A DNA stretch of 64,000 nt. Origin: Cellulomonas cellasea. GTDB lineage: Bacteria > Actinomycetota > Actinomycetes > Actinomycetales > Cellulomonadaceae. The stretch is from contig NZ_JAUDBQ010000016.1 in NCBI RefSeq assembly GCF_030372105.1, positions 47,491 to 111,490 of the forward strand, written 5' to 3'. The notes beneath the pieces were generated by a model. It saw only the letters and a program-made list of their open reading frames with translations, did no database searches and was not told where the DNA came from. The translations under genes were made by a program, and so were the position numbers. This document shows positions 13,571-64,000 of the stretch, piece by piece (the stretch's first letter is position 1; each line of letters starts with the position of its first letter).

Positions 13571-13623
13571 TTGACAGCCGCTCAGATGTCAGCGTGTACT
13601 GGCATGATCGAACAGGTGTTCGA
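13571..13623 (+). promoter_or_regulatory. SOS promoter of imuA-imuB with LexA box
   Basis: A -35 TTGACA (13571-13576), an 18-bp spacer and a -10 TGTACT (13595-13600) are followed 7 bp later by a perfect Cheo/LexA box, TCGAAC-AGGT-GTTCGA (13608-13623). LexA bound there would block the start site. The same layout precedes dnaE2 at 17714-17766, with the string CAGCGTGTACTGG shared exactly. The LexA motif is established for Gram-positive and actinobacterial SOS genes; the promoter assignment is by match. Confidence 0.88.
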
Positions 13624-13667
13624 GATCTGTTCGATTTCGAGATGTGCTCGATAGGGAAGGGCGGGGC

Positions 13668-14621: not shown

Positions 14622-16222
14622 GCACGCGCACCACGGTCGTGTGGGTGCCGGATTGGCCGGTCGTGGCCGCCGTGCGCGGCGACGAGGTGGCCCCGCACCT
14701 GCCCGCCGCCGTCCACGACGGGCGGCGTCTCGTCGCCGTCTCCGCCCTCGCCCGCACACAGGGCGTGCGCCGGGGGATGCGCCGTCGGCAGGCGCAGGGC
14801 TGCTGCCCCGAGCTCGTGCTGCTCGCCGCCGACGAGGGGCGTGACGTGCGGCTCTTCGAACCCGTCGCCACAGCGGTCGAGACAGTCGTCGCGGGCATCG
14901 AGGTGGCCCGCGCCGGCCTGCTGCTGCTGCCGGCCGGGGGAGCCAGCCGCTACCACGGCTCGGAGGAGGTGCTCGCGGAGCGGATCGTCACGGCCGTCGC
15001 CCAGCGCACCGGCCACGAGGCCCACGTCGGGACGGCCGACGGGCTGCTCGCCGCGATCCTGGCCGCCCGCGAGGACGCGACGGTGCCACCCGGCGCCTCG
15101 CGTGACTACTTGGCCCCGCGCGGCATGAGCGAGCTCGCCCACGCCGCCGTCCAGGACGGCCTCGACGCCCAGGTGCGCGATCTTGTGGACCTGCTCGGCC
15201 GATTGGGCCTGCGGGTCCTCGGCGACCTCGCCGCCCTGCCCGACGGGGACGTGCAGGCCCGGTTCGGCACGCTCGGCGCCTGGGCGCAGCTGCTCGCGCG
15301 CGGCCACGACGCCCGCCCGCCGGCTCGCCGCCGCCCGGAGACAGACCTCGAGGTGTCCTGCGAGCTCGACCCGCCGGCCCACCGGGTCGACATCGCCACC
15401 TTCATGGGCAGGCGGCTCGCGGAGGAGCTCCACGCGCTGCTCATGGAGCACTCGGTCACCTGCGGGCGCCTCCAGATCACCGCCCGCACCGACGAGGGCG
15501 AGGACCTGGTCCGGGTGTGGCGCACCGACACGGGCGGGCTCGGCGGGCTCACCGCCGCGCGCATCACCGACCGGATCCGCTGGCAGCTCGAGGGGTGGCT
15601 CACGTCGGGCGCGCTGACCCGGGCGCCCCAGGAGCCCGAGGACGCCCACCCGGTGGCCTTGGTGAGCCTGGCCCTGGCCGCGCAGGACGTCGCCCCGGCG
15701 GGCGCCGAGCAGGGCCGGCTGTGGGGCGGGGCCTCGGGCGGCGACCTGCGGGCGCATCGGGCCCTGGACCGGGTGCAGGGGCTCATCGGCGGTGACGGGG
15801 TGCTGACCGCGGCGCTGCAGGGCGGTCGGGACGTGCGCGACCAGGTGTCGCTGCGGCCCTGGGGTGACCAGACCGCCGCCCCGCGCCCCGCCGACCGGCC
15901 GTGGCCTGGGCGGTTGCCCGAGCCCGCGCCGGCCACGGTGCTGCCCGAGCCCGAGCCGGTGGAGGTGCGCACCGCCGCCGGGGAGCCGGTCCGCCTCGAC
16001 GAGCGCTTCGTGATGAGCGGCAACCCCGCGACAGTGCGGGGCTCGCGCGACGGCACGGCCGAGCGTGCGGTGGTGGGGTGGGCGGGCCCATGGCCACTGG
16101 TCGAGCGGTGGTGGGCGCCGGGGGCCCGGCGCCGGGCGCATCTGCAGGTCAGCCTCGCCGACGGCGGCGCGCTGCTGCTCTCCTGGCAGGGGCGCTGGAT
16201 GTGCGAGGGGGCCTACGACTGA
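14618..16222 (+). CDS. imuB: ImuB: Y-family polymerase-like protein lacking catalytic acids
   Basis: The 534-residue Y-family homologue aligns through palm, fingers, thumb and little finger, but the first catalytic Asp pair is absent (VVWVPDWPVVAA) and the S-x-D-E motif is replaced by LLLPAGGASRYHGSE. It is therefore expected to be inactive as a polymerase, as in mycobacterial ImuB, and to act as the hub joining DnaE2 to the sliding clamp. A clamp-binding candidate is Q365-G-R-L-W369; a second weaker one is QVSLRPWG further on. The last ~140 residues are Pro/Arg-rich and end in a conserved WWAPGARRRAHLQVSL segment. It is co-transcribed with imuA. Confidence 0.9.
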   Translation: MSTRTTVVWVPDWPVVAAVRGDEVAPHLPAAVHDGRRLVAVSALARTQGVRRGMRRRQAQGCCPELVLLAADEGRDVRLFEPVATAVETVVAGIEVARAGLLLLPAGGASRYHGSEEVLAERIVTAVAQRTGHEAHVGTADGLLAAILAAREDATVPPGASRDYLAPRGMSELAHAAVQDGLDAQVRDLVDLLGRLGLRVLGDLAALPDGDVQARFGTLGAWAQLLARGHDARPPARRRPETDLEVSCELDPPAHRVDIATFMGRRLAEELHALLMEHSVTCGRLQITARTDEGEDLVRVWRTDTGGLGGLTAARITDRIRWQLEGWLTSGALTRAPQEPEDAHPVALVSLALAAQDVAPAGAEQGRLWGGASGGDLRAHRALDRVQGLIGGDGVLTAALQGGRDVRDQVSLRPWGDQTAAPRPADRPWPGRLPEPAPATVLPEPEPVEVRTAAGEPVRLDERFVMSGNPATVRGSRDGTAERAVVGWAGPWPLVERWWAPGARRRAHLQVSLADGGALLLSWQGRWMCEGAYD

Positions 16223-16354
16223 GCCGCCAGCCCGTGGGGGCGAGCTGTCGACGGCGAACGGCGCCGTGCCCGGGGGAGGTGTGGCGCGCACCCGTCCTGG
16301 GCCCGTGACCTGGCAGTGTGGGCATTCGAGTGACGTGACGAGGAGGTCATCGCT

Positions 16355-17635
16355 GTGCTGCCCCACCTGACCGACCAGGGAGCCGCCCTGGGAACGAGCC
16401 CCCGGCCGGACCCGGCCATGTCGCATCGGATCGCCGACGTCACCGTGACGGTGCGCGACGCCCAGGGGCAGCCGCTGGCGGACGCGCCGGTGGTGGTCGC
16501 CCAGACCGCGCACCGCTTCCTGTTCGGCTGCATCGGGTTCGACCTGATCGACCTCGCGAACAGCGACGGCGAGGCTGGCGAGGCGGACCGGCGGTTGGCC
16601 GACCAGTGGCTCAGCCTCTTCAACGCCGCCACGCTGCCGTTCTACTGGGGGCAGTTCGAGCCGGAACGGGGCCGCCCCGACACCGCACGGCTGCTCCGCG
16701 CGGCCCGCTGGTTCGCCGATCGGGGATGCGCGGTCAAGGGCCACCCGCTGGCCTGGCACTCCGAATGCGCCGACTGGCTGCTCGACCTGCCTACCAGCGA
16801 GGTCGCGGACGTGTTGGACGCCCGCATCCGGCGCGACGTCGCCGACTTCGCGGGGGTGGTCGACACCTGGGACGCGATCAACGAGGTCGTCATCATGCCC
16901 GTGTTCGACAAGGTCCCCAACGCGATGACGCCGCTGTGCCGCGAGCGCGGGCGCATCCCGACCATCCGGCTGGCCTTCGACGCCGCCCGTCAGGCGAACC
17001 CGGCGGCGACCCTGCTGCTCAACGACTTCGACATGTCCACCGCCTTCGAGTGCCTCATCGAGGGCTGCCTCGAGGCGGGCATCGAGATCGACGCCATCGG
17101 GCTGCAGAGCCACATGCACCAGGGGGCCTGGGGCGAGGACCGCACCCTGGAGGTGCTCGACAGGTTCTCCCGCTACGGCCTGCCGCTGCACCTGACCGAG
17201 ACGACCATCCTGTCCGGCGAGCTCATGCCCGCCCACCTCGAGGACCTCAACGACCACCAGGTCGACGAGTGGCCGTCCACTCCGGGGGGCGAGGAGCGCC
17301 AGGCGCGCGAGGTGGCGAGCTACTACCGGACGCTGCTGTCGCACCCGTCGGTGGAGGCCGCCACCTACTGGGGGCTGAGCGACGCGGGGATGTGGCTGGG
17401 GGCGCCCGGCGGCCTCGTGCGGGCCGACGGCACGCCGAAGCCGGCGTATGACGCCCTGCACGGGCTCGTGAAGGGGGAGTGGTGGCATGAGCCGCGCACT
17501 CTGGCCACCGATGCCCATGGACGTGTGAGTGTGCGGGGATTCCTCGGCGACTACAGCATCACCGCAGGCCAGGGCAGCGCGACGGTCACTCTCGACCGGG
17601 CGGGGGTCGCTGGCGCGGAGGTCCGGCTGGGCTGA
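16355..17635 (+). CDS. GH10 endo-xylanase-family protein, apparently intracellular
   Basis: This is a 426-residue family 10 glycoside hydrolase. The acid/base is E177 in TWDAINEV and the nucleophile E282 in LHLTETT, with substrate-site motifs KGHPLAWH and IDAIGLQSHMHQG. There is no signal peptide, so it should act on imported xylo-oligosaccharides or aldouronates rather than polymer. N- and C-terminal extensions (about 20-60 and 385-426) look like small beta-rich segments. GTG 16355 follows AGGAGG at 16341-16346. It sits between imuB and dnaE2, an unexpected place for a carbohydrate enzyme; dnaE2 has its own SOS promoter downstream. Confidence 0.9.
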   Translation: MLPHLTDQGAALGTSPRPDPAMSHRIADVTVTVRDAQGQPLADAPVVVAQTAHRFLFGCIGFDLIDLANSDGEAGEADRRLADQWLSLFNAATLPFYWGQFEPERGRPDTARLLRAARWFADRGCAVKGHPLAWHSECADWLLDLPTSEVADVLDARIRRDVADFAGVVDTWDAINEVVIMPVFDKVPNAMTPLCRERGRIPTIRLAFDAARQANPAATLLLNDFDMSTAFECLIEGCLEAGIEIDAIGLQSHMHQGAWGEDRTLEVLDRFSRYGLPLHLTETTILSGELMPAHLEDLNDHQVDEWPSTPGGEERQAREVASYYRTLLSHPSVEAATYWGLSDAGMWLGAPGGLVRADGTPKPAYDALHGLVKGEWWHEPRTLATDAHGRVSVRGFLGDYSITAGQGSATVTLDRAGVAGAEVRLG

Positions 17636-17713
17636 CTCGCGGGTCGCCGCGGGGCCGGGGGCAGGGTCGGGCGCAGGGCTGAGGCGAACGCTCGGCGGGC
17701 GTCGCCTGGTGGT

Positions 17714-17766
17714 TTGACGTCCCGGTGTCCGGCAGCGTGTACTGGTGTGATCGAACATGTGTTCGA
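17714..17766 (+). promoter_or_regulatory. SOS promoter of dnaE2 with LexA box
   Basis: A -35 TTGACG (17714-17719), an 18-bp spacer and a -10 TGTACT (17738-17743) are followed after 7 bp by the perfect LexA box TCGAAC-ATGT-GTTCGA (17751-17766). Spacing and core sequence copy the imuA promoter. The box ends 49 bp before the preferred dnaE2 start and shows that dnaE2 can be induced independently of the GH10 gene in front of it. Confidence 0.88.
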
Positions 17767-17815
17767 CGGCGCGGGCCCCCTCGCGCCGGGCAGCCAGTGG
17801 ACGGGAGGGCTCGTC

Positions 17816-20800
17816 GTGCCGCGGACGACGGACGGCCGGTACGCCGAGCTGCACGCCCACTCGGCGTTCAGCTTCCTCGACGGCGCGAGCCAGCCCGAGG
17901 AGCTCGCCGCCGAGGCTGTGCGGCTCGGCCTGGACGCCCTCGCGCTCACCGACCACGACGGCCTCTACGGCGTGGTGCGCTTCGCCCAGGCCGCGCGCGC
18001 CGTCGGGCTGCCCACCGTGTTCGGCGCCGAACTGCACCTGCCCGTCCCCGGCGGGGGGTGGGGCGCGCAGCGCGTCAGCGGCCCCGACGTGCTCGACGCG
18101 CCCACCGGCGTCCCCGACCCCCGCGCCACCCACCTGCTCGTGCTGGCCCGCGGGCCCGACGGCTACCGCGCGCTGTCGAGGGCCATCGCCACGGGACACC
18201 TGGCCGCCGGGGCCAAGGGCGCCGCGCAGCACACCTGGGAGGGGCTCGCCGAGCAGGCCGCCGGGCAGTGGCTCATCCTCACCGGCTGCCGCAAGGGCTC
18301 CGTCCGCCAGGCCCTCGCCAGCGGCGGGGGAGCAGACGGCGAGGTGACGCCCGAGGGATTCCTCGCCGGCCGCGCCGAGCTCGACCGGCTCGTCGGGCTG
18401 TTCGGCCACGAGAACGTCGCCGTCGAGGCCACCGACCACGGCGGCCCGTTCGACGCCGAGCGCAACGACGCCCTCGCGGCGCTCGCGGCCGCCGCCGACC
18501 TGCCCCTCGTCGCCACCGGCAACGTCCACTACGCCACCCCCCGGGACGCCGATCTCGCGGCGGCGCTCGCGGCCGTGCGGGCCCGCTCCTCGCTCGACGA
18601 CCTCGACGGCTGGCTGCCCGGCGCCCCCACCGCCCACCTGCGCTCGGCGGCGGAGATGCTGGCCCTGCACCGACGCCACCCGCAGGCCGTGGCCACCGCC
18701 GCGCGCCTGGCCGCCGAGTGCGCGTTCGACCTCGCCCTGGTCGCCCCCCAACTGCCGCCCTACCCCGTGCCGCCCGGCCACACGGAGGCGAGTTGGCTGC
18801 GCGAGTTGGTGCGTCGCGGCGCCCTGGAGCTGTACGGGCCGCCGGAGGCCGAGCGGGTGCCCGGGGCGTACGCGCAACTCGAGCACGAGCTGCGCGTCAT
18901 CGAGGACCTGGGCTTCCCGGGGTACTTCCTGGTCGTCTACGACCTGGTCGACTTCTGCCGCCGCAACGGCATCATGGCGCAGGGCCGCGGCTCGGCCGCC
19001 AACTCCGCGGTCTGCTACGTGCTGCGGGTCACGGCGGTGGACGCGGTGGCCCACGGGCTGCTGTTCGAGCGCTTCCTGGCGCCCGAGCGGGACGGGCCCC
19101 CGGACATCGACGTGGACATCGAGTCGGGCCGCCGCGAGGAGGTCATCCAGTACGTCTACGCCAAGCACGGCCGCACGCATGCCGCGCAGGTCGCGAACGT
19201 CATCACCTACCGGCCGCGCTCGGCGGTGCGCGACGCGGCGCGCGCGCTCGGCTACGACGCGGGGCAGCAGGACGCGTGGAGCAAGTCCATCGAGCGCTGG
19301 GGCAGCCTGCGCGGCGCGGACCCAGTGACGCCCGACGGCCGCGACGCCGCGCCCGCGCGTGACGCGCCGCCCGCCCGGACCGGTCGGGGCCGCGACCCGC
19401 ATGACGCGGTGTGGGGGACGACGTTCGAGCCCACCGCCGACCGGCACGACGTGGTCCCGCGCACCCGCCCCCCGGCGGCGTCCGAGCTCGACGAGATCCC
19501 CGAGCAGGTCATCGACCTGGCGGAGCGATTCCTGCGCCTGCCGCGTCACCTGGGCATCCACTCGGGCGGCATGGTGATGTGCGACAGGCCCGTCATCGAG
19601 GTCTGCCCGGTGGAGTGGGCCCGGATGCCGGGGCGCACCGTGCTGCAGTGGGACAAGGAGGACTGCGCCGACGCGGGGCTGGTGAAGTTCGACCTGCTGG
19701 GCCTGGGCATGCTGACCGCCCTGCGGATCGCGTTCGACCTGGTGCGCGAGCATGAGGGCGTCGAGCTCGACCTGCACGCCCTGCCGTACGAGGACCCGCT
19801 CGTCTACGACCTGCTCAGCGCCGCCGACACGGTGGGCGTGTTCCAGGTGGAGTCGCGCGCCCAGATGGGCACCCTGCCGCGCCTGCAGCCGCGCCGGTTC
19901 TACGACATCGTCGTGGAGGTCGCGCTCATCCGCCCCGGGCCCATCCAGGGCGGCTCGGTGCACCCGTACATCAACCGGTACCACGGCCGGGAGAAGGTCA
20001 CCTACCTGCACCCCAAACTGGAGAAGTCGCTCGCGAAGACCCTGGGGGTGCCGCTGTTCCAGGAGCAGCTCATGCAGATGGCCATCGACGTCGCGGACTT
20101 CACCCCCGCCGAGGCCGACCAACTGCGCCGGGCGATGGGCTCCAAGCGGTCCACCGAGCGGATGGAGGCCCTGCACGCCCGCCTGCTCGCCGGGATGGCC
20201 GCGAACGGCATCGACCGGGAGACCGGCGAGCAGATCTTCGACAAGCTCAAGGCCTTCGCCGACTTCGGGTTCCCCGAGTCCCACGCGTACTCGTTCGCGT
20301 TCCTCGTGTACGCGAGCGCCTGGCTCAAGGTGCACCACCCGGCCGCCTTCTACGCCGGCCTGCTGGCCGCGCAGCCGATGGGCTTCTACTCCCCACAGTC
20401 CTTGGTCGCCGACGCGCGCCGCCACGGCCTGCAGGTGCTGCGCCCGTGCGTGCAGGCCTCCGGGGTGCAGGCACGGGTCGAGCGGCTGGGCCCGACGCCG
20501 CCGGGTGGGGAGCCGCGCCTCGTGCCGACGCACTCCGGCACGGCGCCGGTGCACGAGCACGCGACAGCCGACAACGGCCGGGCGCTCGCGGTCCGGATGG
20601 GCCTCGCCTCGGTGCGGGGCGTGGGGGAGGACGTCGCCGAGCGCGTGGTGGCCGAGCGCGTCGCGCATGGGCCGTTCGTGGACCTGCGCGATCTGGTGCG
20701 CCGGGTGAGCCTGACCACCGCGCAGCTCGAGGCGCTCGCCACCGGCGGCGCCCTGGGCGCGTTGGGGGCCACCCGGCGGGAGGCGTTGTGGGCCGCGGGC

Positions 20801-54096: not shown

Positions 54097-54372
54097 ATGC
54101 CGCTCCGGGCTCGCGGGTGCGGGGTGGGGGCGCGGTGAGAGGTCACCTGGGCACGGTAGCGCGGCCTGCCCGCTCGACATGAGCCGGAAAGCCCATGTCA
54201 GACGCCCGCGACGGGGCGCCAAGGGTGCTGACAGGTTGTCGTCTTCAGCGCGCCGTGGTCACGCTGAACGCGAATCTTGACGCTAGGCTGCACACGTCGA
54301 GGACGAAGGTCCCAGGTGGAGGCCGCCCGAAGAGGTGGTGGCCCAGGCCGGGACGTGAGTGAGAGGTCCCCA

Positions 54373-55266
54373 GTGCGCCCGCAGAACCCCAGCCGGAACC
54401 GGCGCCCCGCTGTGAAGTGGGGGGCCCTGGTGACCGTCGCCGTCCTATTCCTCGCGGGGTGCTCCGCGGAGGTCCAGCGGGGCTTCCTGCCCGGCTACAC
54501 CGACGGGCAGGTGACCAACCAGACCGGCCGGATCACCAACCTGTGGGTCGGCTCGTGGATCGCCGCGCTCGCTGTCGGCGTGATCACCTGGGGCCTGATC
54601 CTCTGGTGCATCACCGTCTACCGGAAGCGCAAGGACGACGAGCGGCTGCCCGTGCAGCTGCGGTACCACGTCCCGCTCGAGGTCATGTACGTGATCATGC
54701 CCCTGATCATGGTCGGCGTCCTCTACTACTTCACCGCGCGCGACCAGTCGGAGATCCAGTCCAACGAGGCAGAGTCCGACCTCACCGTGCAGGTGATCGG
54801 CAAGCAGTGGAGCTGGGACTTCAACTACCTCACCGATGACGCCTACGACACCGGGGAGCACGCCCAGGAGATCGGCGCGGACGGCGTCCTCGCCGAGCAG
54901 CCGACCCTGTGGCTCCCCGTCGACGAGCGCGTGCAGTTCGTCCTCAACTCCCGCGACGTCATCCACTCCTTCTGGGTGCCCGCGTTCCTCTACAAGCAGG
55001 ACATGTTCCCGGGGCGGACCAACCTGTTCCAGATCGTGCCCACCCGCGTGGGCGAGTACGTCGGCAAGTGCGCCGAGCTGTGCGGCGAGGAGCACTCCTC
55101 GATGCTCTTCAACGTCAAGGTCGTGGAGCGTGACGAGTACGACGCGCACATCGCCGAGCTGCGTGAGAAGGGCCAGACCGGCGCGCTCGGGCTGGAGTAC
55201 AGCCGCCTGCAGGACTTGAACGGCGTGGCGAACCCCGCCCGCGCCACGGAAGAGGTTGACAACTGA
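54373..55266 (+). CDS. ctaC: Cytochrome c oxidase subunit II
   Basis: The 297-residue CuA subunit has an N-terminal lipoprotein-type signal with lipobox LAGC (C30) and two membrane helices (about 58-80 and 105-125). The cupredoxin domain has the aromatic motif [10 protein letters not shown] and CuA ligands in DVIHSFW and [14 protein letters not shown]. It accepts electrons from the bcc complex in the actinobacterial aa3 chain. GTG 54373 follows GAGAGG; an earlier GTG at 54355 is possible. The stop shares a base with the ctaD start. The 276-bp gap upstream (54097-54372) holds a plausible -10 TAGGCT at 54284 but no clear -35. Confidence 0.93.
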
Positions 55267-57077
55267 TGGCCACCGCAACCGAGGCGATCCCCGGCCTGGC
55301 CCCGAACCGCCAGACACTCGGGCGGACGGTGGTCAAGTGGATCACCTCCACCGACCACAAGACGATCGGGTACCTCTACCTGATCACGTCGTTCCTCTTC
55401 TTCTGCTTCGGCGGCGTGCTCGCCCTGCTGATCCGGGCCGAGCTCTTCGAGCCCGGCATCCAGATCGTGCAGTCGAAGGAGCAGTACAACCAGCTCTTCA
55501 CGATGCACGGCACGATCATGCTGCTGCTGTTCGCGACGCCGCTGTTCGCTGGCTTCGCGAACGTCATCATGCCGCTGCAGATCGGCGCGCCCGACGTCGC
55601 GTTCCCGCGGCTCAACATGTTCGCGTACTGGCTGTACCTGTTCGGCGGCATCATCGCGTGCGCCGGGTTCGTGACCCCGCAGGGGGCCGCGTCGTTCGGC
55701 TGGTTCGCCTACGCGCCGCTGTCCAACGCCGTCTACTCGCCAGGGCTCGGTGGAGACCTGTGGGTGTTCGGGCTCGCCCTCACCGGCTTCGGCACGATCC
55801 TGGGCGCCGTCAACTTCATCACCACGATCGTGACGATGCGCGCGCCCGGCATGACGATGTTCCGGATGCCGGTGTTCACCTGGGGCACGCTCATCACCGC
55901 GCTGATGATCCTCATGGCGTTCCCGCCGCTCGCCTCGGCCCTGTTCGCGCTCGGCGCGGACCGCCGGCTCGGCGCGCAGGTGTTCAACCCGGACAACGGG
56001 GGAGCGCTGCTCTGGCAGCACCTGTTCTGGTTCTTCGGGCACCCCGAGGTTTACATCATCGCCCTGCCGTTCTTCGGCATCGCGTCGGAGATCATCCCGG
56101 TGTTCAGCCGCAAGCCGCTGTTCGGCTACAAGGGCCTGGTCTACGCGATCATCGCGATCGCGGCGCTGTCGATGACGGTGTGGGCGCACCACATGTACGT
56201 CACCGGCGCCGTGCTGCTGCCGTTCTTCGCGCTCATGACCATGCTGATCGCCGTGCCGACAGGCGTGAAGTTCTTCAACTGGATCGGCACGATGTGGCGG
56301 GGGAAGATCACCTTCGAGACGCCGATGCTGTGGACCCTCGGGTTCATGGTGACGTTCCTCTTCGGCGGCCTCACCGGGATCATCCTGTCCAGCCCGGCCC
56401 TCGACTTCCACCTGTCCGACTCGTACTTCGTGGTGGCGCACTTCCACTACGTGGTCTTCGGCACCGTGGTGTTCATGATGTTCGCCGGCCTGTACTTCTG
56501 GTGGCCCAAGTTCACCGGGCGCATGCTCGACGAGCGGCTCGGCAAGATCCACTTCTGGACGCTGTTCATCGGCTTCCACGCGACGTTCCTGGTGCAGCAC
56601 TGGCTGGGGGTCGACGGCATGCCGCGCCGGTACGCCGACTACTCCCCGCAGGACGGGTTCACCTGGATGAACCAGCTCTCGACCGTCGGGTCGGTGCTGC
56701 TCGCCGCGTCCACGCTGCCGTTCCTGTGGAACGTGTACATCACCTGGCGCCGGGCGCCCAAGGTGACGGTCGACGACCCGTGGGGCTACGGGGCGTCGCT
56801 CGAGTGGGCCACGAGCTGCCCGCCGCCGCGGCACAACTTCACGTCGCTGCCGCGCATCCGCTCCGAGCGCCCCGCGTTCGACCTCCACCACCCGGAGATC
56901 GCCGCCCTCGACCGCGCGCAGCCGGACACCGGTGTGCTCGACCAGTTGCTCGGCGACGCCGACCGGCGTGGTGAGAACACACTGGTGGAAGAGCGCCTCG
57001 CGCAGGGGACAGGGGAGCCTGAGCAGTCCGCGACCCAGGTGAAGGACCAGGGCGACGAGCCGGAGGACCAGCGATGA
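55266..57077 (+). CDS. ctaD: Cytochrome c oxidase subunit I
   Basis: The 603-residue heme-copper oxidase core has twelve helices. Ligands are visible as His in FTMHGTIM (heme a), HPEVY (CuB His and cross-linked Tyr), WAHHMYV (two CuB His) and HFHYVVFG (heme a3 and a). The K-channel and proton-pumping framework looks standard. The last ~90 residues form an acidic cytosolic tail. It overlaps ctaC by one base and ctaF by 4 bp. Confidence 0.96.
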
Positions 57078-57472
57078 AGATCGAGTACAAGCTCTTCCTC
57101 TACGGGGTGGTGTTCTTCCTTCCCGTCGGCCTGATCTACGGGCTGTGGAGCGGCTGGGAGCCCATCGGCTCCCTCGGCATCCCGCTGGTGGCGGCCCTCG
57201 TCGGGATGATCGGCGGCTACTTCCTGCTGCTGTCGCGCCGCATCGACCCCCGCCCCGAGGACGACCCCGAGGCCGAGATCGAGCAGGGCGCCGGTGACCA
57301 GGGCGTGTTCAGCCCGTGGAGCTGGTGGCCGCTGGTCATCGCCGGCGCCGCCGCGCTGGTCTTCCTGGGCATGGCTGCCGGTTGGTGGATCGCCTACATC
57401 GGCGCCGCGTTCGCCGTGATCGGGCTGGTGGGCTGGGTGTTCGAGTTCTCCCGCGGCCAGCACGCCCACTGA
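57074..57472 (+). CDS. ctaF: Actinobacterial cytochrome c oxidase subunit IV
   Basis: The 132-residue four-helix protein ([32 protein letters not shown]..., [38 protein letters not shown]...) matches CtaF, the small subunit specific to actinobacterial aa3 oxidase supercomplexes. It starts 4 bp before the ctaD stop and ends the oxidase operon at a strong terminator. Confidence 0.93.
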
Positions 57473-57500: not shown

Positions 57501-57537
57501 CCACGAGCCCCCACGCGCCTAGCGTGGGGGCTCGTGG
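57501..57537 (+). terminator. Terminator of the ctaCDF operon
   Basis: CACGAGCCCCCACGC (57502-57516) pairs perfectly with GCGTGGGGGCTCGTG (57522-57536), a 15-bp stem with a 5-nt loop. The right arm abuts the first possible start codons of the next gene. Confidence 0.88.
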
Positions 57538-57560
57538 TGACTGTGAGCGAGGGCGTGGAT

Positions 57561-58049
57561 GTGGGACGGGACAGGCGCGGCAGGCGGCGGAGGGCTATGG
57601 CCGCCGTCGCGGGAGCGTTGGCGCTCCCGATGCTCGGCGGTTGCGCCTGGTTCGGCGGCGACGAGGACACGGGCGACATGGTCGAGGTCTTCGACCTGGC
57701 GGTGGGCGACTGCCTGCGCACGCCCGCGGAGATCACCGCCGAGCTGACCGAGGTCGAGCGGGTGTCGTGCGAGCAGCAGCACACCCTCGAGGTGTTCGCG
57801 GTCACGGGCTATGAGCCGGCCGACGCCGAGTTCCCCGGCGACGCGCAGCTCGCCACCTACGCCGACGGCGCCTGCGTCGCCGAGTTCGAGGGCTACGTCG
57901 GCCTCGACTACCGCGACTCCGACTTGTTCTTCACGTACCTGCTGCCCTCGGCGCGCGGCTGGTCGCAGGGCGAGGACCGTGACATCACCTGCCTGGTGAC
58001 CACCACGGGCGCCCAGTTGACCGCGTCCGTGCGCGGCGCTGAGGTCTGA
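57561..58049 (+). CDS. Septum-formation-type lipoprotein
   Basis: The ~162-residue product has a basic n-region, a hydrophobic core and lipobox LGGC (C28 from this start). The exported part has paired Cys and the pattern VFDLAVGDCLRTP...VERVSCEQQHTLEVFAVTGYEP...CVAEFEGYVGLDY...LPSARGWSQGEDRDITCLV. This matches the septum-formation family of actinobacterial surface proteins. Several GTG starts exist (57534-57561); the first ones lie in the upstream terminator, so 57561 is preferred, but this is uncertain. It lies only 6 bp before the DUF4280 gene. Confidence 0.75.
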   Translation: MGRDRRGRRRRAMAAVAGALALPMLGGCAWFGGDEDTGDMVEVFDLAVGDCLRTPAEITAELTEVERVSCEQQHTLEVFAVTGYEPADAEFPGDAQLATYADGACVAEFEGYVGLDYRDSDLFFTYLLPSARGWSQGEDRDITCLVTTTGAQLTASVRGAEV

Positions 58050-58055
58050 GGCGCC

Positions 58056-58442
58056 GTGGGCAGGCCCCAGGTGACGTCGACGGCGATGCTCATGTGCTCG
58101 TTCGGCGTCGCGCCAGCGACGATGCAGGTGCTGCCGGTCAAGCGGGTGATGGTCGAGGGGAAGCCCGCGGCGACGATCATCGACGCGACGCCGTTCGTCA
58201 ACATCCCCCCGTTCGCGATGTGCATGAGCCTGGCGAACCCGGCCGTGGCGGCGGCCACCAGCGCGGCGCTGGGCGTGCTCACCCCGATGCCGTGCACGCC
58301 TGTGACGACCCCCTGGGCGGGGGGCTCGCCGACGGTGCAGATCGGCGGCGCGCCGGCCCTGGTGGCGGGGACGACCTGCGCCTGCGCGTACGGCGGGGTC
58401 ATCCAGATCGTGATGCCGGGGTCGGTGCGCACCACCAGCTGA
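58056..58442 (+). CDS. DUF4280 (PAAR-like) protein of a contractile injection system
   Basis: The 128-residue protein has the complete DUF4280 pattern: MLMCSFGVAPATMQVLP, PAATIIDATPFVNIPPFAMCMSLANP, VLTPMPCTPVTTPW and CACAYGGVIQIV, with regularly placed Cys that may bind metal. In other bacteria DUF4280/PAAR-like proteins cap the spike of phage-tail-like injection machines. GTG 58056 lies 6 bp after the lipoprotein gene, and a DUF4255 gene follows 157 bp downstream. Confidence 0.87.
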   Translation: MGRPQVTSTAMLMCSFGVAPATMQVLPVKRVMVEGKPAATIIDATPFVNIPPFAMCMSLANPAVAAATSAALGVLTPMPCTPVTTPWAGGSPTVQIGGAPALVAGTTCACAYGGVIQIVMPGSVRTTS

Positions 58443-58599
58443 GCGCCGCCCCGGGGCGCCCGCGTCCAAGTTGCGTAGCGATTACCGATGAGCGGCGCCG
58501 TGCCCGCCGCATAGCCTCGGCAAGCCCGTGCCACCCGCATGCCTGCGGCCATCACGGGCATGTGCGCACATTGGTCAGGCTCGACGGAGGAGAGGTCTG

Positions 58600-59253
58600 T
58601 TGCTGATCCCCACGGTCGAGGACGGCCTGGAGGCGTTCTGGCGCGCCACGCTGCCATTGCCCCGCGAGGTGGGCGACGTGTCCTTCGAGACGCCGGCGTC
58701 GAGCTGGTCTTCTCAGGTGAACCGCATCACCGTCAACGCGTTCCTCTACGGGATCAGCAGGAGCGCGCAGCCGCCGCGCCCCGCCGCGGCACGGGCCACA
58801 GGCGCCGGCGCGCAGCAGCGGGCCCCGCTGCCGATGGTGCAGCTCGACTACTTGGTGAGCGCCTGGGCGAGCGTCGTGCGCGATGAGCACCAGTTGCTCG
58901 GCGACGTGATGTCGCGGGTGCTCGCCCACCAGGTGCTGCCCCCGCAGTACCTGCCCGCCCCGTTGGCCTCGGGGGTGCAGCTCGCTGTCGTGCAGGATCA
59001 GGGCAACCGGCCGCGCGACCTGTGGGGCGCGCTCGGCGGGCAGCTGCGCGCGAGCTTCCTGCTGATGGTGACCGTCGCGGGTGACGCCTTCGACTGGGAG
59101 GCGGCGCCTCCGGCCGTCACATCGGTGGCCGGCTCCGCGGTCGCGACTCCGCGGGGCGCGCCCGAGGCGCCCACCGCCGCGCGCGGGGGCTCGGGCATCC
59201 GCCGGGAGGGCTCCGGCCTGGTGCGGGACGCCGACGGATCTGGGCCCGCGTGA
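58600..59253 (+). CDS. DUF4255 (Pvc16/Afp16-type) protein, predicted tail-terminator of an eCIS
   Basis: This 217-residue protein has the DUF4255 core: LIPTVEDGLEAFWRATLPLP, VSFETPASSWSSQVNRITVNAFLYGISR, PMVQLDYLVSAWASVVRDEHQLLGDVMSRVLAHQVLPPQYL and DLWGALGGQLRASFLLMVTVAGD. The family forms the sheath/tube terminator of extracellular contractile injection systems. TTG 58600 is chosen because GGAGGAGAGG lies at 58586-58595 and the conserved start LIPTVEDG follows at once. The Ala/Gly-rich tail after residue 180 is variable. Confidence 0.88.
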   Translation: MLIPTVEDGLEAFWRATLPLPREVGDVSFETPASSWSSQVNRITVNAFLYGISRSAQPPRPAAARATGAGAQQRAPLPMVQLDYLVSAWASVVRDEHQLLGDVMSRVLAHQVLPPQYLPAPLASGVQLAVVQDQGNRPRDLWGALGGQLRASFLLMVTVAGDAFDWEAAPPAVTSVAGSAVATPRGAPEAPTAARGGSGIRREGSGLVRDADGSGPA

Positions 59254-59260
59254 CCGTCGG

Positions 59261-61450
59261 ATGAGGGTGCTGTGTGCTGTCGACCGGGTGGAGGTCGCGC
59301 CCGGGTCGAGTGTCGAGATCCCGCTGGAGGTCGTGAACACCGGCCACGTGATCGAGGGCGTCGGCCTGCGCGCGCGCGGGTCGCTGGAGGAGTTCGCCCA
59401 CGCGCGTCCCGAGCGGGTCGCGCTCTTCCCCGACGCGTCCGGGACGGTCACCGCCGTGGTGGACGTGCCCGCCGTGTTCCCGGCGGGCGCCCACCCGCTG
59501 GCGCTGCTCGTCACCGGCAACGACCCGGCGGTCGTGGCCGGGGCCCATGAGGTCCTGGTGGTGGTCGGGGTCCGCCCCGCGCTGGCGGTGGAGGCCGACC
59601 CCGCCGTCGCGCGGGCGTGGCGCAAGGCCGAGTTCGCCGTCGACGTGGTCAACAAGGGCAACGTGCTGCTCGACGTGGCGCTGCGGGCTGATGACGCGGA
59701 CCGCAGCCTCCGGGCGAAGGTCACGCCGTCGAGCGTCTCGGTGGCGCCCGGTGAGCGGGCCCGCTGCACGGTGGAGGTCCGCGGGCCGCGCCACCTGGTG
59801 GGCTCCGACCGCGACCGGGCGCTGCGACTGGACGCGACGGCGGCCGAGCAGCAGGCGACGGTGCCGTTGGTGCTGCGCCAGCGGCCGCTGATCGGCCGGG
59901 GCCTGCTGACCACGCTGACCCTGGTCGCGATCGTCGGCATGTGGGCGGCGGTGTCACTCCTGGGCATCCGCGCGGTGCTGGGCCAGGACCCGCTGACCCG
60001 GGTGGCGCCGGCGTCGTTCTTCGCCGCGTCCGGCTCCGCCGACGGCGCCGCGGGCGGCGTGGCGGGGGCCGTCCCGAAGGACGGGGCCGTGGCCGCGGGC
60101 GTCGGGGGAGTGCTGAGCGGGCAGGTGCGGGGCGCCGTCGACCCCACGGGCGTCGGGCGGATCACTGTCGAGGTGATCCGGCTGGGACGCGACGGGCCGG
60201 TGGTGGTCAGCTCGGCCGCCACCCAGGCGGACGGCGGCTACACGGTGGCCGGGCTGCTGCCCGGCTCCTACCATCTGCGGTTCAGCGCCGAGGGCTATGA
60301 CGACGTGTGGCACCCGCAGGCGCCCGCGCTGGAGGGCTCGGACCCCGTGCGCGCCACAGCGGGCGAAGTGACCGACGGTGTGGACGCCGTGATCACGGGA
60401 CATGAGGCGGCCTTGCGGGGGACTGTCACGCTCGCGGACGACGACGAGGTCGTCACTGTGACCGCCCGGCCGACCTGGGCCGGTGGCGAGGCGCTGTCGC
60501 CGTGGGAGGCCACGGCCGCCGCCGACGGCTCCTACGTGCTCGCGGGCTTGCCCGCGCCGGGCTCCTACGAGGTGACGTTCAGCGCCGAGGGGTACGCGCC
60601 GACCACCCTCGCCGAGCGGGTGCTCGGAGGCCAGGAGCGCTTCGTGACGGACGTGCGGCTCGGGGCGGGCTCCGGGCAGATCACCGGCCGGGTCACGGAC
60701 GGAGGGGCCGGGCTAGGCGGCGTCGTGGTGAGCACCACCGTCGACGGCAAGACGCTCGAGGTCGGCACCCCCACCACGGGCACGGTGGGCGCCTACGTCT
60801 TGACCGGGCTGCCCACCCCCGGCACGTACGTGCTGACCTTCGCGAAGGACGGCCACGCCTCCCGCACCCTCGTCGTGGACCTGGGGCCGGGGGAGCAGCG
60901 CACCGGCGCCGACGTCGCGCTGCGCGCGGGCGCGGGGACGATCACCGGCAAAGTCACCGACGCGGCGGGGGCCGGGCTCGGCGGCGCCACCGTGCGCCTC
61001 GGCGGGTCATCGACGGCGGCGGTCGTCACGACGCTCACGCAGGGCGACGTGGGCGCGTTCCAGCTGACGGGGCTCGCGGGCGCGGGCTCGTACACGGTCA
61101 CCGTCGAGCTCGCGGGGCACGCGGCCGCGACGGTGCCGGTCGTGGTGGGCTCCGACGGGAGCTCGGCGCCGGTGCGCGTCACCCTGACGTCGGCGGTGGG
61201 CGCCGTCTCCGGCCGGGTGTTGAACGCGGGCGTGGCAGTGGGCGGCGCCAGCGTCGAGGTGACCGACGGCAAGCAGACCTGGCGCACCACGTCCGCGAGC
61301 GGCACCGGCGCGTTCACCGTGGGCTCGCTCGCGCCGCGCCGCTACACCGTGCGGGTGCTGCAGGGCGCGCAGGTGGTCGCCGCGACCCTGGTCACCGTCA
61401 CTGCCGGGGGCGTCGCCTCGCAGGACGTCGACCTGACGGCGGGGAGCTGA
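59261..61450 (+). CDS. One-pass membrane protein with carboxypeptidase-regulatory-like repeats
   Basis: The 729-residue protein has two N-terminal Ig-like beta domains (about 1-100 and 105-205; APGSSVEIPLEVVNTGHVIEGV..., RKAEFAVDVVNKGNVLLDV). One transmembrane helix follows (about 210-235; LLTTLTLVAIVGMWAAVSLLGI). The C-terminus has about five carboxypeptidase-regulatory/CNA-B-like modules (GGYTVAGLLPGSYHLRFSAEGY, GSYVLAGLPAPGSYEVTFSAEGY, and similar). There is no signal peptide, so the N-half may be cytosolic. It lies 7 bp after the DUF4255 gene and 1 bp before a paralogue, in the same operon. Similar proteins accompany actinobacterial eCIS loci as far as I recall; the role is inferred. Confidence 0.8.
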   Translation: MRVLCAVDRVEVAPGSSVEIPLEVVNTGHVIEGVGLRARGSLEEFAHARPERVALFPDASGTVTAVVDVPAVFPAGAHPLALLVTGNDPAVVAGAHEVLVVVGVRPALAVEADPAVARAWRKAEFAVDVVNKGNVLLDVALRADDADRSLRAKVTPSSVSVAPGERARCTVEVRGPRHLVGSDRDRALRLDATAAEQQATVPLVLRQRPLIGRGLLTTLTLVAIVGMWAAVSLLGIRAVLGQDPLTRVAPASFFAASGSADGAAGGVAGAVPKDGAVAAGVGGVLSGQVRGAVDPTGVGRITVEVIRLGRDGPVVVSSAATQADGGYTVAGLLPGSYHLRFSAEGYDDVWHPQAPALEGSDPVRATAGEVTDGVDAVITGHEAALRGTVTLADDDEVVTVTARPTWAGGEALSPWEATAAADGSYVLAGLPAPGSYEVTFSAEGYAPTTLAERVLGGQERFVTDVRLGAGSGQITGRVTDGGAGLGGVVVSTTVDGKTLEVGTPTTGTVGAYVLTGLPTPGTYVLTFAKDGHASRTLVVDLGPGEQRTGADVALRAGAGTITGKVTDAAGAGLGGATVRLGGSSTAAVVTTLTQGDVGAFQLTGLAGAGSYTVTVELAGHAAATVPVVVGSDGSSAPVRVTLTSAVGAVSGRVLNAGVAVGGASVEVTDGKQTWRTTSASGTGAFTVGSLAPRRYTVRVLQGAQVVAATLVTVTAGGVASQDVDLTAGS

Positions 61451-61451
61451 C

Positions 61452-64000
61452 ATGCGTGTGGTGACCGAGCCGCGTCGGGCGGTGGCGCACCCCGGCCAGG
61501 AGACCGTGCTGACGGTCGCCGTGACCAACACCGCCGACGTGATCGCCGGGGCGACGGTGCGGTTCCTGGGCGCCGACGCGAGCTGGGTCACCGTCGAGAC
61601 GCCGACGCTGCGGCTGTTCCCCGGCGCCACCGAGCAGACCGAGGTCCGGGTGCTGCTGCCCGAGGGCGTGCCCGCCGGCGAGCGGCAGATGGCCGTCCAG
61701 GTCACAGCGCTCGGCGAGGGCGGTCTCACCCATGTCGAGGACATCACCCTCGAGGTGCCGCGCGCGCCGCGCGTGGACGTCCGGCTCGAGCCGGCCACGG
61801 TCACCGGCGGCCGGGGCGGCGTCTTCGGCGTGGTGGTCGAGAACAACGGCAACACCACGGAGACGTCCTCGCTGGTCGGCGCGGACGCCGAGGGCAAGGT
61901 CAGGTTCGCGTTCACCCCCGACACCTTCGTGCTGGCCCCGGGGGAGCAGGTCACCACGGAGCTGCGCGCCCGCGGCCGGCGGCCGTGGTTCGGCAGCCCC
62001 GCGGTGCGCCCCTTCGAGTTGCGCGTCACGGACCCGCGCGGAGACGTCGCCACGGGTCGTCGCGGCCGCGGCGGCGCCCCTGACTGGGACGAGGAGGACC
62101 TCGCACAGGGGCCGAGTGTCGTGTCCGACGCGACACCGCCGGCGGCCATCGGGGTGCTCGTCCAGCGTCCCCGGTTCAACCGCGGGCTCATGTCCCTGCT
62201 CGGGCTGCTCGTGGCGGTGAGCGTGTTCGCGGTGGTGATCGCCGTCGCGCTGACCAGCGTGGTCAACCGCTCCGCAGCCGACCGGGACTTGGCGCTGCAG
62301 GTGGCGCAGGCACGCGAGCAGGGGGCCACGGTGGGGACGTCGTCGATCGGCGGCGTGGTGCGGCTGCTGTCCTCCGAGGGCGCGGTGGCTGGCGTCGCCG
62401 TCGAGGCCTTCGGCGCGTCGGACCCCACGCAGGCGCTGGCGACGACGGCCACCGGCGACGACGGCGCGTTCCAGGTGTCGAAGCTGCCCGCCGGGGAGTA
62501 CAAGCTCAGGTTCCGCGGCGCGGGGTTCAGCGAGGTCTGGTACCCGTCCTCGCCGTCCCCTGAGGACGCCGCCGCCGTCGAGCTCGGCACAGGGCAGTCG
62601 GTGGGCGGGCTCGTCGTGCTGCTCGGCGGCGTGCCCGCGACGCTTTCCGGGACTGTGGTGGGCGCCGATGTGGCGGGGGCCACCGTGCAGCTCGAGCTGC
62701 CGATCGAGGCCGAGGACCTGGCCGGCGCGGCGCCGGGGGCCACCACGGGCGCGATCGTCCGCACCGCCCCGGTGGGCGCGGACGGCACATTCCAGCTCGA
62801 GGACGTCCCCTCGCCGAACGTCTACGACATCGTGGTCTCGAAGCCGGGCTTCAGCACCCAGGTGCAGCGCGTCGACGTCGCGGCGGGCGAGTTGCGCTCC
62901 GGCATCGAGATCCGGCTGCTGGAGGGCGACGGCACGATCTCCGGCGTGGTGGTCGGGTCCCAGGGGCCGATCGGCGACGCCACCGTGATCGCGACGGCCG
63001 GGGACGTCACGGTGCGCACCGTGACGCTCACCGACGGCGACGTCGGCTCCTTCACCCTGCGCAATCTGCCCACCCCGGCGACGTTCACGGTGGTCGTCGC
63101 GGCGGCCGGCCACTCGTCGGCGACCCTCAGCCTCGACCTCGCCGCAGGCCAGGCCCTCACCGGCGTCTCCGCGACCCTCGGGATCGACTCGGGGCGCCTC
63201 GGGGGCAGGGTCGGGGTCACCCCGGCCGGCCTGCGCGCCGGCGGGGTGGGCGTGACCGTCAGCGACGGCGCGCGCACCTGGCAGACGGTCAGCCAGTCAA
63301 CTGTCGACGTGGGCGCGTGGTCGGTGTCCGGCCTGGCGATCCCCGGCTCGTACACCGTGACGTTCACCCGGGACGACCTCGCCACCCAGGTCGTATCGGT
63401 GAGCCTCGACGGCAACGGCTCCGTCACCTCCGGCGCCCCGCGGGCCGACCAGGTCAACGCGACGATGCGGGCCTCCACCGCCCAGCTCGCCGGCATCGTC
63501 TCGCAGACCGACGAGCAGGGGGCCGTGACCGGGCCGGCGCCCAACGTGACGGTGACGCTGTCCTCCGGCAGCACGCAGTACCAGGTCACGACCGCCTCGA
63601 CGCCGGCCGCCCAACGGGGCAGGTACGCGGTGGACGCACTGCCACCGGGCACGTACACGGTGACGTTCTCCCGCTCGTCGACGGCCTCCACCTCGAGCAT
63701 CGTGACGCTGGTCGCGGGCCAGACCGCCGTGCTCGACGCCACCCTGGCCAGCCCCGCGAGCGTGCGCGGCAAGGTCACCCAGGCCGGTGTCGACGCGGCG
63801 GGCGTCGTCGTCAACCTGTACCGGGCCACCGACTACGGCACAGCCGCCGGCCCCGTCGCCAGCACCACCACGAACACCAGCGGCGCCTACGCCTTCCCCG
63901 AGGTGGAGGCCCCCCAGCACTACCTCGTCGAGGTGCGGATGAGCGCGTCCGGGCCGCCGACCGCGACATCCGCGGTCACCACAGTGCTCAACAGCCAGGC
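61452..64000 (+). CDS. Paralogous one-pass membrane protein with carboxypeptidase-regulatory-like repeats (partial)
   Basis: The frame from ATG 61452 stays open to the window end (849 codons, no stop). Its layout repeats that of the upstream gene: two Ig-like domains (about 1-110 and 111-200), an acidic linker, one transmembrane helix (about 245-270; LMSLLGLLVAVSVFAVVIAVALTSVV), a short coiled stretch ADRDLALQVAQAREQG, then at least six regulatory-like modules. Examples are FQVSKLPAGEYKLRFRGAGF, FTLRNLPTPATFTVVVAAAGH and WSVSGLAIPGSYTVTFTRDD. The start ATGCGTGTG mirrors that of the paralogue. It probably arose by tandem duplication. Confidence 0.82.
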   Translation, partial: MRVVTEPRRAVAHPGQETVLTVAVTNTADVIAGATVRFLGADASWVTVETPTLRLFPGATEQTEVRVLLPEGVPAGERQMAVQVTALGEGGLTHVEDITLEVPRAPRVDVRLEPATVTGGRGGVFGVVVENNGNTTETSSLVGADAEGKVRFAFTPDTFVLAPGEQVTTELRARGRRPWFGSPAVRPFELRVTDPRGDVATGRRGRGGAPDWDEEDLAQGPSVVSDATPPAAIGVLVQRPRFNRGLMSLLGLLVAVSVFAVVIAVALTSVVNRSAADRDLALQVAQAREQGATVGTSSIGGVVRLLSSEGAVAGVAVEAFGASDPTQALATTATGDDGAFQVSKLPAGEYKLRFRGAGFSEVWYPSSPSPEDAAAVELGTGQSVGGLVVLLGGVPATLSGTVVGADVAGATVQLELPIEAEDLAGAAPGATTGAIVRTAPVGADGTFQLEDVPSPNVYDIVVSKPGFSTQVQRVDVAAGELRSGIEIRLLEGDGTISGVVVGSQGPIGDATVIATAGDVTVRTVTLTDGDVGSFTLRNLPTPATFTVVVAAAGHSSATLSLDLAAGQALTGVSATLGIDSGRLGGRVGVTPAGLRAGGVGVTVSDGARTWQTVSQSTVDVGAWSVSGLAIPGSYTVTFTRDDLATQVVSVSLDGNGSVTSGAPRADQVNATMRASTAQLAGIVSQTDEQGAVTGPAPNVTVTLSSGSTQYQVTTASTPAAQRGRYAVDALPPGTYTVTFSRSSTASTSSIVTLVAGQTAVLDATLASPASVRGKVTQAGVDAAGVVVNLYRATDYGTAAGPVASTTTNTSGAYAFPEVEAPQHYLVEVRMSASGPPTATSAVTTVLNSQ

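What the first reader, a model, noticed from the sequence alone, without database searches (positions are those of the whole stretch)
58056..64000. Edge of a probable extracellular contractile injection system (eCIS) locus
DUF4280 (PAAR-like) and DUF4255 (Pvc16/Afp16-type) genes lie together and are followed by two giant membrane proteins in the same direction with almost no spacing. DUF4255 is a known structural marker of eCIS, and the DUF4280 family is associated with spike-capping functions. No sheath, tube, baseplate or AAA+ ATPase gene is inside the window, so the rest must lie beyond 64000 if this is a real system. The free-living, polymer-degrading actinobacterial setting makes effector and target questions open.
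Basis: partly seen in the sequence, partly recalled or inferred. Interest (0 to 1): 0.78.

Follow-up and report, generated by a model that had tools for sequence, protein, structure and literature searches.

The report
Membrane-docked phage-tail-like injection machine
The window ends inside a gene cluster for a phage-tail-like injection machine, whose other genes sit at the end of a second contig, and the cluster carries three conserved membrane proteins that would likely hold the machine against, and reach through, the wall of a single-membrane bacterium; how such machines attach there is largely an open question.

Summary
DUF4280, Pvc16_N/DUF4255 and two membrane-repeat genes are real. The contig stops at base 64000; sheath, two tubes, LysM-tube, spike, gp25, baseplate J and Tail_P2_I genes lie at the end of contig C3 of the same assembly. 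Relatives G002 and G006 hold both halves on one contig, about 87 and 55 bp apart at the break. A 27-28 kb block sits between ctaF and sodA-qcr-ctaE there (in the window genome by its contig-end flanks); in the other 4 of 4 genus members that junction is closed. The AAA+ ATPase is elsewhere in the genome, beside an eCIS_core (DUF4157) gene. The sheath belongs to a monophyletic type (47 of 88, support 0.995) apart from the Streptomyces type. Its hallmark is a trio of predicted N-in/C-out proteins (about 730, 850 and 2,000 aa: two Ig-like domains, a TM helix, long repeats) plus a tail-anchored zinc-ribbon protein in CisA's place. The trio's N-module is homologous to proteins of the Streptomyces Sco4256-4258 kind, published as effectors. 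Because the outer parts are conserved and, in relatives, often wall- or glycan-binding, I favour a membrane/wall dock over toxic cargo: inferred, not shown.

The parts
54277..57472 (+). ctaC-ctaD-ctaF (cytochrome c oxidase II, I, IV): left flank of the insertion site, not part of the CIS
   Evidence: Pfam COX2, COX1, Cyt_c_ox_IV; in 4 of 4 genus members without this CIS type ctaF is followed after about 110-470 bp by sodA-qcr
57534..58049 (+). Septum_form lipoprotein, first gene of the CIS cluster on this side
   Evidence: PF13845 5e-13; lipobox LGGC (sequence, motif read by eye); next to DUF4280 in 15 of 15 type A loci where DUF4280 was found, 6 of them in other families beside the sheath; one locus of another type (G183) has DUF4280 without it
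58056..58442 (+). DUF4280, PAAR-like, likely spike tip
   Evidence: PF14107 4.2e-29, PAAR_motif 8.8e-06; weak PDB matches only
58528..59253 (+). DUF4255/Pvc16_N tail terminator (cap); the true start may lie further in
   Evidence: PF14065 1.4e-24; 9gts_0A 'Pvc16 N-terminal domain-containing protein' 1.7e-20
59261..61450 (+). mem1, 729 aa: two Ig-like domains, TM helix 213-239, linker, transthyretin-like repeats
   Evidence: AlphaFold2 mean pLDDT 84.9; 728-800 aa in 24 relatives
61452..64000 (+). mem2, 849 aa seen, cut by the contig end: N-module, TM about 249-267, repeats
   Evidence: 834-898 aa in 23 relatives

Best explanation
This is one end of a contractile injection system gene cluster, and its three tandem membrane proteins likely dock the particle to the inside of the cell membrane and reach out through the cell wall. 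Shown from sequence: the core machine genes, the trio's conserved order and lengths, a strong TM helix in each, and homology of the trio's N-module to Streptomyces proteins of the Sco4256-4258 kind. Inferred: the N-modules (two Ig-like domains) are cytoplasmic and would bind the baseplate; the repeats are outside and would hold or sense the wall; the tail-anchored zinc-ribbon protein beside Tail_P2_I would do the cytosolic part of CisA's job; the AAA+ ATPase and eCIS_core protein encoded elsewhere would act in trans, for cargo loading or priming. On envelope stress or contact the docked particle would fire through its own membrane and wall, either killing the cell or reaching a neighbour; I cannot tell which. 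That this is a CIS I hold at about 0.97; the docking role sets the confidence below.
For: Core genes. Both halves joined in two relatives, same insertion site. All three membrane genes present in 15 of 15 type A family loci (found with the sheath; window genome included) whose fetched stretch reaches that far, and in 10 of 10 loci of four other families, which were picked because they showed several strong matches to the N-profile. Lengths hardly vary: 728-800, 834-898, 1884-2129 aa (giant3 without one locus cut by its contig). Ectodomains are at least as conserved as N-modules: mean identity 51.9 v 47.5, 54.6 v 47.7, 42.2 v 40.8%, unlike swapped toxin tails. A hydrophobic 19-residue window above 1.6 in 99 of 99 N-module frames; flank charge positive-inside in 71, equal in 15, reverse in 13. 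Ectodomain families in 22 relatives: ricin lectin 4, fn3 4, ChW 2, PASTA 1, LysM 1 (members may overlap); of the 120 listed of 1136 Streptomyces-type hits 87 ricin, 30 ChW, 1 PG_binding_1, 2 without (my count). 16 of 20 single-gene loci have CIS genes within the fetched stretch. A zinc-ribbon protein with C-terminal TM in 24 of 24 loci where its gene was found, at CisA's place; CisA is a membrane protein needed for firing in S. coelicolor (PMC12237407, section 7 and passages). Same two-sandwich-TM build in a Streptomyces relative.
Against: No localisation or interaction data. In S. coelicolor the similar proteins Sco4256-4258 are reported as effectors: toxic in E. coli, needed for filled tube lumen and for cell death, with particles seen free-floating (PMC10066040, passages); Sco4256 was found in purified particles (PMC10020575, passages and section 11). 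At least 10 of the 22 relatives have none of the named outer families; 2 of 22 also match CDtoxinA, which I take as cross-match of the lectin fold (in one search all 10 proteins listed with it also carry ricin families). The positive-inside signal is not uniform (13 of 99 reversed), and some trio members show a second, weaker hydrophobic window. The zinc-ribbon/CisA link is weak in sequence (BLASTP 3e-04).
Confidence: 0.6

Rival explanations
1. The trio are cargo effectors, as proposed for Sco4256-4258: threaded into the tube lumen by their N-module and fired into a membrane, where the TM and the tail would do damage.
For: Homologous N-module and TM. In S. coelicolor loss of Sco4256-4258 empties the lumen and removes stress-induced death, and each is toxic in E. 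coli (PMC10066040, passages). Small folded domains in single file could fit a tube lumen (my estimate).
Against: No toxin or enzyme family at a curated cut-off in the window genome's trio. The tails are long, conserved end to end and fixed in length. giant3 has about 2,000 residues. A separate eCIS_core (DUF4157) candidate cargo gene exists.
Confidence: 0.25
2. A released, classical eCIS whose giant repeat proteins act as tail fibres on the particle surface.
For: giant3 lies just past the baseplate and zinc-ribbon genes, near the usual fibre place, though on the other strand; a 2026 fibre survey links carboxypeptidase-regulatory and Ig-like domains to one fibre class (eBAP4) and shows a Cellulomonas example of it (PMC12923769, passages).
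Against: Each protein has an internal TM after 210-265 residues; in that survey eBAP4 systems lack Tail_P2_I, which this locus has. Baseplate-anchor (eBAP) models were not run here.
Confidence: 0.08
3. A decaying or split, non-functional remnant.
For: ATPase and eCIS_core are away from the cluster; mem2 and giant3 of G006 and giant3 of G019 did not give normal frames.
Against: The core genes of the window genome found by family search are open frames; the trio's order is kept in five families; ATPase and eCIS_core are kept in 3 of 3 genus members with this CIS and absent from 2 of 2 without any.
Confidence: 0.04

Closest known systems
Streptomyces coelicolor CIS (CIS-Sc, eCIS type IId)
   Same: Best PDB matches by sheath (8bky, 2.7e-134), baseplate J (9gtp, 4.2e-153) and cap (9gts, 1.7e-20) (that these are Streptomyces CIS entries is recalled); two tube paralogues; no tail-fibre or tape-measure family seen.
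   Different: Separate sheath clade (47 of 88, support 0.995); ATPase not in the cluster in this genus; three long repeat-tailed membrane proteins; CisA's place taken by a short tail-anchored zinc-ribbon protein.
Sco4256-4258 (Streptomyces CIS-associated 'effectors')
   Same: N-module of two Ig-like domains plus one TM; tandem genes beside CIS genes; same predicted build.
   Different: About 430-490 aa with a lectin-type or short tail in Streptomyces, against 730/850/2,000 aa with transthyretin-like repeats here. The S. coelicolor proteins themselves were not fetched; the link runs through named Streptomyces relatives, one called 'hydrolytic protein'.
CisA (Sco4242)
   Same: Place just after Tail_P2_I; zinc-ribbon part before a TM. 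A membrane-bound particle fired through the wall was already proposed for S. coelicolor with this protein (PMC10020575, discussion passage).
   Different: The product here ends with the TM and has no outer domain (24 of 24); a CisA-like protein stands there in G005 (424 aa) and G001 (387 aa).
Thylakoid CIS of Anabaena and haloarchaeal T6SS-like CIS (Hbor_38620)
   Same: CIS held at a membrane by adaptor parts (PMC8894136, PMC11566945, passages).
   Different: Different adaptors: modified fibre and baseplate in Anabaena, a putative six-TM anchor in archaea; the two-Ig-TM-repeat trio is not mentioned in the passages seen.

Membership tests
Contractile injection system (eCIS/CIS) | Pvc16_N/DUF4255 tail terminator | tested here: met
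   PF14065 1.4e-24; 9gts 1.7e-20
Contractile injection system (eCIS/CIS) | Contractile sheath and tube | tested here: met
   Phage_sheath_1 and 1C; two Phage_T4_gp19
Contractile injection system (eCIS/CIS) | Baseplate and spike (gp25, baseplate J, VgrG-like, CIS_tube-LysM, PAAR-like) | tested here: met
Contractile injection system (eCIS/CIS) | AAA+ ATPase encoded in the cluster | tested here: not met
   Absent from the cluster in G000, G002, G006. An AAA+/WHD gene lies elsewhere: G000:C23, about 300 kb away in G002 and G006. It is 49-54% identical to the ATPase near 11 other type A clusters but only 38 and 41% in G309 and G319
Contractile injection system (eCIS/CIS) | Tail fibre (Afp13) and tape measure (Afp14) | tested here: inconclusive
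   No such Pfam match in the cluster genes scanned; fibre-anchor (eBAP) models were not run; a disordered 976-aa protein could be a ruler
Type IId CIS (Streptomyces type) | Best solved relatives are CIS-Sc structural proteins | tested here: met
   (entry origin recalled)
Type IId CIS (Streptomyces type) | Falls within the published IId clade | not tested
   The 2019 classification was not at hand; the sheath clade is apart from the one holding Streptomyces sheaths (midpoint root)
Type IId CIS (Streptomyces type) | CisA | tested here: inconclusive
   Zinc ribbons and TM at the right place, no outer domain; BLASTP 3e-04
Sco4256-type proteins | N-module plus single TM, CIS-linked | tested here: met
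   by way of Streptomyces relatives
Sco4256-type proteins | Toxic cargo in the tube lumen | not testable with these tools
   needs cells
Type VI secretion system | ClpV and TssJLM membrane complex | not tested
   None noticed among the cluster genes scanned; no dedicated search

The most novel reading that the evidence does not exclude
A trans-envelope contractile injection system of single-membrane bacteria: mem1 and mem2 would span the wall and the 2,000-residue giant3 would project beyond it, so that a cytoplasmic particle docked by their Ig-like N-modules and a tail-anchored zinc-ribbon adaptor would fire outward through its own wall in the T6SS manner, with ATPase and cargo supplied from a satellite locus. 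The Streptomyces 'effectors' would be short forms of the same dock.
Probability: 0.3. Interest if true: 0.85.

Novelty: new variant of a known kind. Interest (0 to 1): 0.62.

Why it matters
How a CIS finds the membrane in a cell with a thick wall and no outer membrane is largely open: in Streptomyces CisA is needed for firing, and the cargo candidates there carry membrane spans and glycan-binding tails that fit anchors as well as toxins. This clade, found in many Actinomycetota genera including cultured Cellulomonas species, offers fixed-length, wall-length candidates that can be deleted and imaged. It also shows a CIS whose ATPase lies outside its cluster, whereas one paper calls an in-cluster ATPase invariable (PMC10020575, introduction passage), so surveys that demand it would miss such systems.

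Tried and rejected
Extending past 64000 on the same contig: impossible, C8 ends there. DUF4280/DUF4255 as stray genes: rejected by the core genes. ATPase lost: rejected, one lies elsewhere. The giant proteins as ordinary secreted repeat proteins: unlikely, since 20 of the 22 listed PF13620 matches of this genome are at the two contig ends. A tail-assembly-chaperone/tape-measure story for the gene after tube1 and the disordered 976-aa protein rests on one PHROG match (5.4e-06) and place only; the stretch between tube2 and LysM in type A relatives is loose (about 850-1,330 codons, from coordinates), so it is kept as a side note. PDB search with the N-module gave only weak Ig-type matches; Foldseek gave generic multi-Ig, pilin and S-layer proteins with low TM-scores. 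Papers: no paper in the held library joined 'contractile injection' with 'carboxypeptidase regulatory-like', but that wording misses PMC12923769, which speaks of carboxypeptidase-regulatory domains in one fibre class. Cellulomonas with CIS gave 3 papers; one was opened, passages only.

Rows dropped: G006 mem2 and giant3 and G019 giant3 (broken or odd frames) from the length and identity counts; the G219 giant3 (cut by its contig) from the quoted length range, though it is in the identity means. In one search the gene after tube1 was queried in a wrong frame by my mistake, with X at its stops; that column is not used (corrected). Type A loci that end before the trio (G057, G031 twice, G034, G041, G083) are not in the 15 of 15, and G065 was not fetched. 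Some genomes counted for the ATPase hold a second CIS, so a hit there need not belong to type A.
Full report
What is there. The window is G000:C8:47491-111490, and C8 has 111490 bases, so base 64000 is a contig end. At the right edge lie, all on +, a Septum_form lipoprotein gene (57534-58049), DUF4280 (58056-58442), Pvc16_N/DUF4255 (58528-59253), mem1 (59261-61450) and mem2 (61452 to the end).

The rest of the machine. A family search of the same genome finds one sheath and two tube genes, all on contig C3 at 146-149 kb of 163.7 kb. Read towards the C3 end, the cluster is: LuxR-type regulator (-), sheath, tube1, a chaperone-like gene, DUF6760, tube2, a 976-aa disordered protein, CIS_tube-LysM, VgrG-like spike, gp25, baseplate J (TIGR02243, 8.5e-129), Tail_P2_I, a zinc-ribbon gene; then, facing them, a >2,000-aa repeat gene (giant3) cut by the contig end. 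20 of the 22 listed CarboxypepD_reg matches of the genome lie at the ends of C8 and C3.

The two contig ends belong together. In G002 (single-contig genome) and G006 the cluster is continuous in this order, and about 87 and 55 bp lie between the part matching the last seen residue of mem2 and the part matching the first seen residue of giant3. G006 is Cellulomonas timonensis by its contig length and position. The flanks agree: ctaC-ctaD-ctaF on the C8 side, sodA-qcr-ctaE on the C3 side. In the other four genus members (G001, G003, G004, G005) ctaF is followed by sodA after about 290, 160, 110 and 465 bp between aligned parts (G003's contig ends in qcrB). So a block of 27-28 kb sits in a respiratory gene cluster in 3 of 7 genus members; for the window genome this is inferred from its two contig ends.

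ATPase and cargo gene elsewhere. No AAA+ ATPase is in the cluster in the window genome, G002 or G006. PF22977 (winged-helix domain of CIS ATPases here) finds one gene in each, away from the cluster, and none in the two CIS-less members. The window genome's copy (L172:8439-10535, 698 aa) has WHD and AAA domains. Against it, the ATPase near 11 other type A clusters is 49-54% identical over the aligned part; a twelfth (G050) gave only a 50-residue match at 54%; two (G309, G319) are at only 38 and 41%; ATPases of other CIS types are at 34-50%. Beside it lies a 780-aa eCIS_core (DUF4157) gene (L172:10658-13000), and the same pair is kept in G002 and G006. In 35 family genomes PF22977 rings in 15 of 18 with this CIS type (a 16th, G050, shows an ATPase by tblastn; some hold a second CIS), below its cut-off in 1 with another sheath, and in 0 of 16 with no sheath match.

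Type and spread. With the sheath as query 35 of 150 family genomes match: 21 at 76-100% identity (type A), the other 14 at 34-51% for their best match. In a tree of 88 sheaths type A (47) is monophyletic with support 0.995; the rest have 41-54% identity to the window genome's (midpoint root; G005's own value not computed there). Named carriers include Cellulomonas, Actinotalea, Sanguibacter, Rarobacter, Nocardioides, Jiangella, Nakamurella, Ruania and Acidimicrobiaceae bins (the best 80 of 528). The best PDB matches are 8bky/8bl4 for the sheath and 9gtp/9gts for baseplate J and cap; that these are Streptomyces CIS entries is recalled, since the listing gives only molecule names.

The trio. mem1, mem2 and giant3 share an N-module and a strong TM helix. 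AlphaFold2 of mem1 (24 sequences, mean pLDDT 84.9, pTM 0.36) gives two beta-sandwiches (1-208), helix 213-239, a disordered linker and then beta-sandwich repeats (Pfam finds five CarboxypepD_reg stretches). All three genes are there in 15 of 15 type A family loci long enough to show it (three of these 45 genes with odd frames), and in 10 of 10 loci of four other families picked for several strong N-profile matches. The lengths are tight, and the outer parts are as conserved as the inner ones. Gene order around the trio varies between families: G305, for example, has the sheath side next to DUF4255. A profile of the N-module and TM rings in 91 of 394 genomes of the class at E 0.001, but many weak ones are generic Ig matches. 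Of 20 genomes chosen among the stronger single hits, 16 have CIS genes in the fetched stretch and 4 do not (G205, G228, G291, G382).

What the outer parts look like elsewhere. In 22 such relatives Pfam names ricin lectin (4), fn3 (4), ChW (2), PASTA (1) and LysM (1); members may overlap, and at least 10 have none of these. Among Streptomyces-type proteins at about 80-100% identity in the N-module, 87 of the 120 listed (of 1136) carry ricin, 30 ChW, 1 PG_binding_1 and 2 neither (counted by eye; mostly Streptomyces by name). One hit is named 'hydrolytic protein' from S. coelicoflavus; it carries ricin families. A model of G261's protein has the same two sandwiches, helix 219-241, disordered linker and a C-terminal domain (mean pLDDT 73.7). 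In S. coelicolor Sco4256-4258 are three single-TM proteins with similar N-termini and, for two, ricin-like tails, proposed as effectors (PMC10066040, passages); a second group found Sco4256 in particles and related proteins in 90% of 105 Streptomyces IId clusters (PMC10020575, section 11 and passages). I did not fetch the S. coelicolor sequences, so the equation with Sco4256-4258 rests on architecture, gene order and close named Streptomyces relatives.

The zinc-ribbon protein. The gene after Tail_P2_I is where S. coelicolor has cisA. In the 24 of 24 type A loci where it was found it encodes four CxxC motifs (two ribbons), a proline-rich linker and a hydrophobic stretch that ends 0-3 residues before the C-terminus: a tail anchor. 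The genus members with the other CIS type have a longer protein there (424 aa in G005, 387 in G001); G005's has zinc ribbons and an F5/8-like outer domain by Pfam and a TM read by eye, matching what the papers say of CisA. Sequence similarity between the two is weak, so I call the short protein a positional and architectural counterpart.

How it most likely works. Shown: the genes and their conservation. Inferred: the particle assembles in the cytoplasm; the N-modules and zinc ribbons bind its baseplate at the membrane; the repeats span the wall and may sense it; the ATPase and eCIS_core protein act from the satellite locus. The main rival is that the trio is cargo, as proposed in Streptomyces. 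Against cargo speak the fixed length, the conserved outer parts, the wall- or glycan-binding look of many tails across the family, and giant3's size; for cargo speak the published lumen and toxicity data. Both could hold if the dock is pulled out on firing.

Known or new. It is a CIS, near to but outside the sheath clade that holds Streptomyces: a new variant of a known kind. My searches of the held library turned up no description of this trio as a dock. The general idea is not new: CisA as adaptor, a membrane-bound S. coelicolor particle long enough to pass the wall, and anchored CIS in Anabaena and haloarchaea are published (passages).

Noticed in passing
G000:C23, L172:8439-13000 (and L173, L174): Satellite pair: CIS-type AAA+/WHD ATPase followed by an eCIS_core (DUF4157) protein of 780 aa with no further Pfam domain at E 0.05, about 300 kb from the CIS in G002 and G006.
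   Followed up: partly
L010:2636-6709 (C3:147.6-151.7 kb): A tail-assembly-chaperone-like gene (PHROG 508, 5.4e-06), DUF6760, tube2, and a 976-aa protein that looks disordered by composition (80% A, P, G, S, T, R, V; no Cys or Tyr): a possible disordered tape measure in a CIS type said to lack one.
   Followed up: partly
window 57534-58442: Septum_form lipoprotein and DUF4280 travel together in 15 of 15 type A loci where DUF4280 was found: beside DUF4255 in this genus and several relatives, beside the sheath in 6 loci of other families.
   Followed up: partly
ctaF (57472) to sodA/qcr on C3: Clean occupied/empty insertion site of a 27-28 kb CIS block inside the cytochrome oxidase/bc1 gene cluster.
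   Followed up: yes
L043 (G006 mem2 and giant3), L078 (G019 giant3): Trio genes that do not read as normal-length frames in two relatives; assembly error or decay, left as they are.
   Followed up: no
window 13589-20668 (-): 2,359-aa open frame without a Pfam match at 1e-5; may be antisense in this GC-rich genome.
   Followed up: no
   Followed up: no
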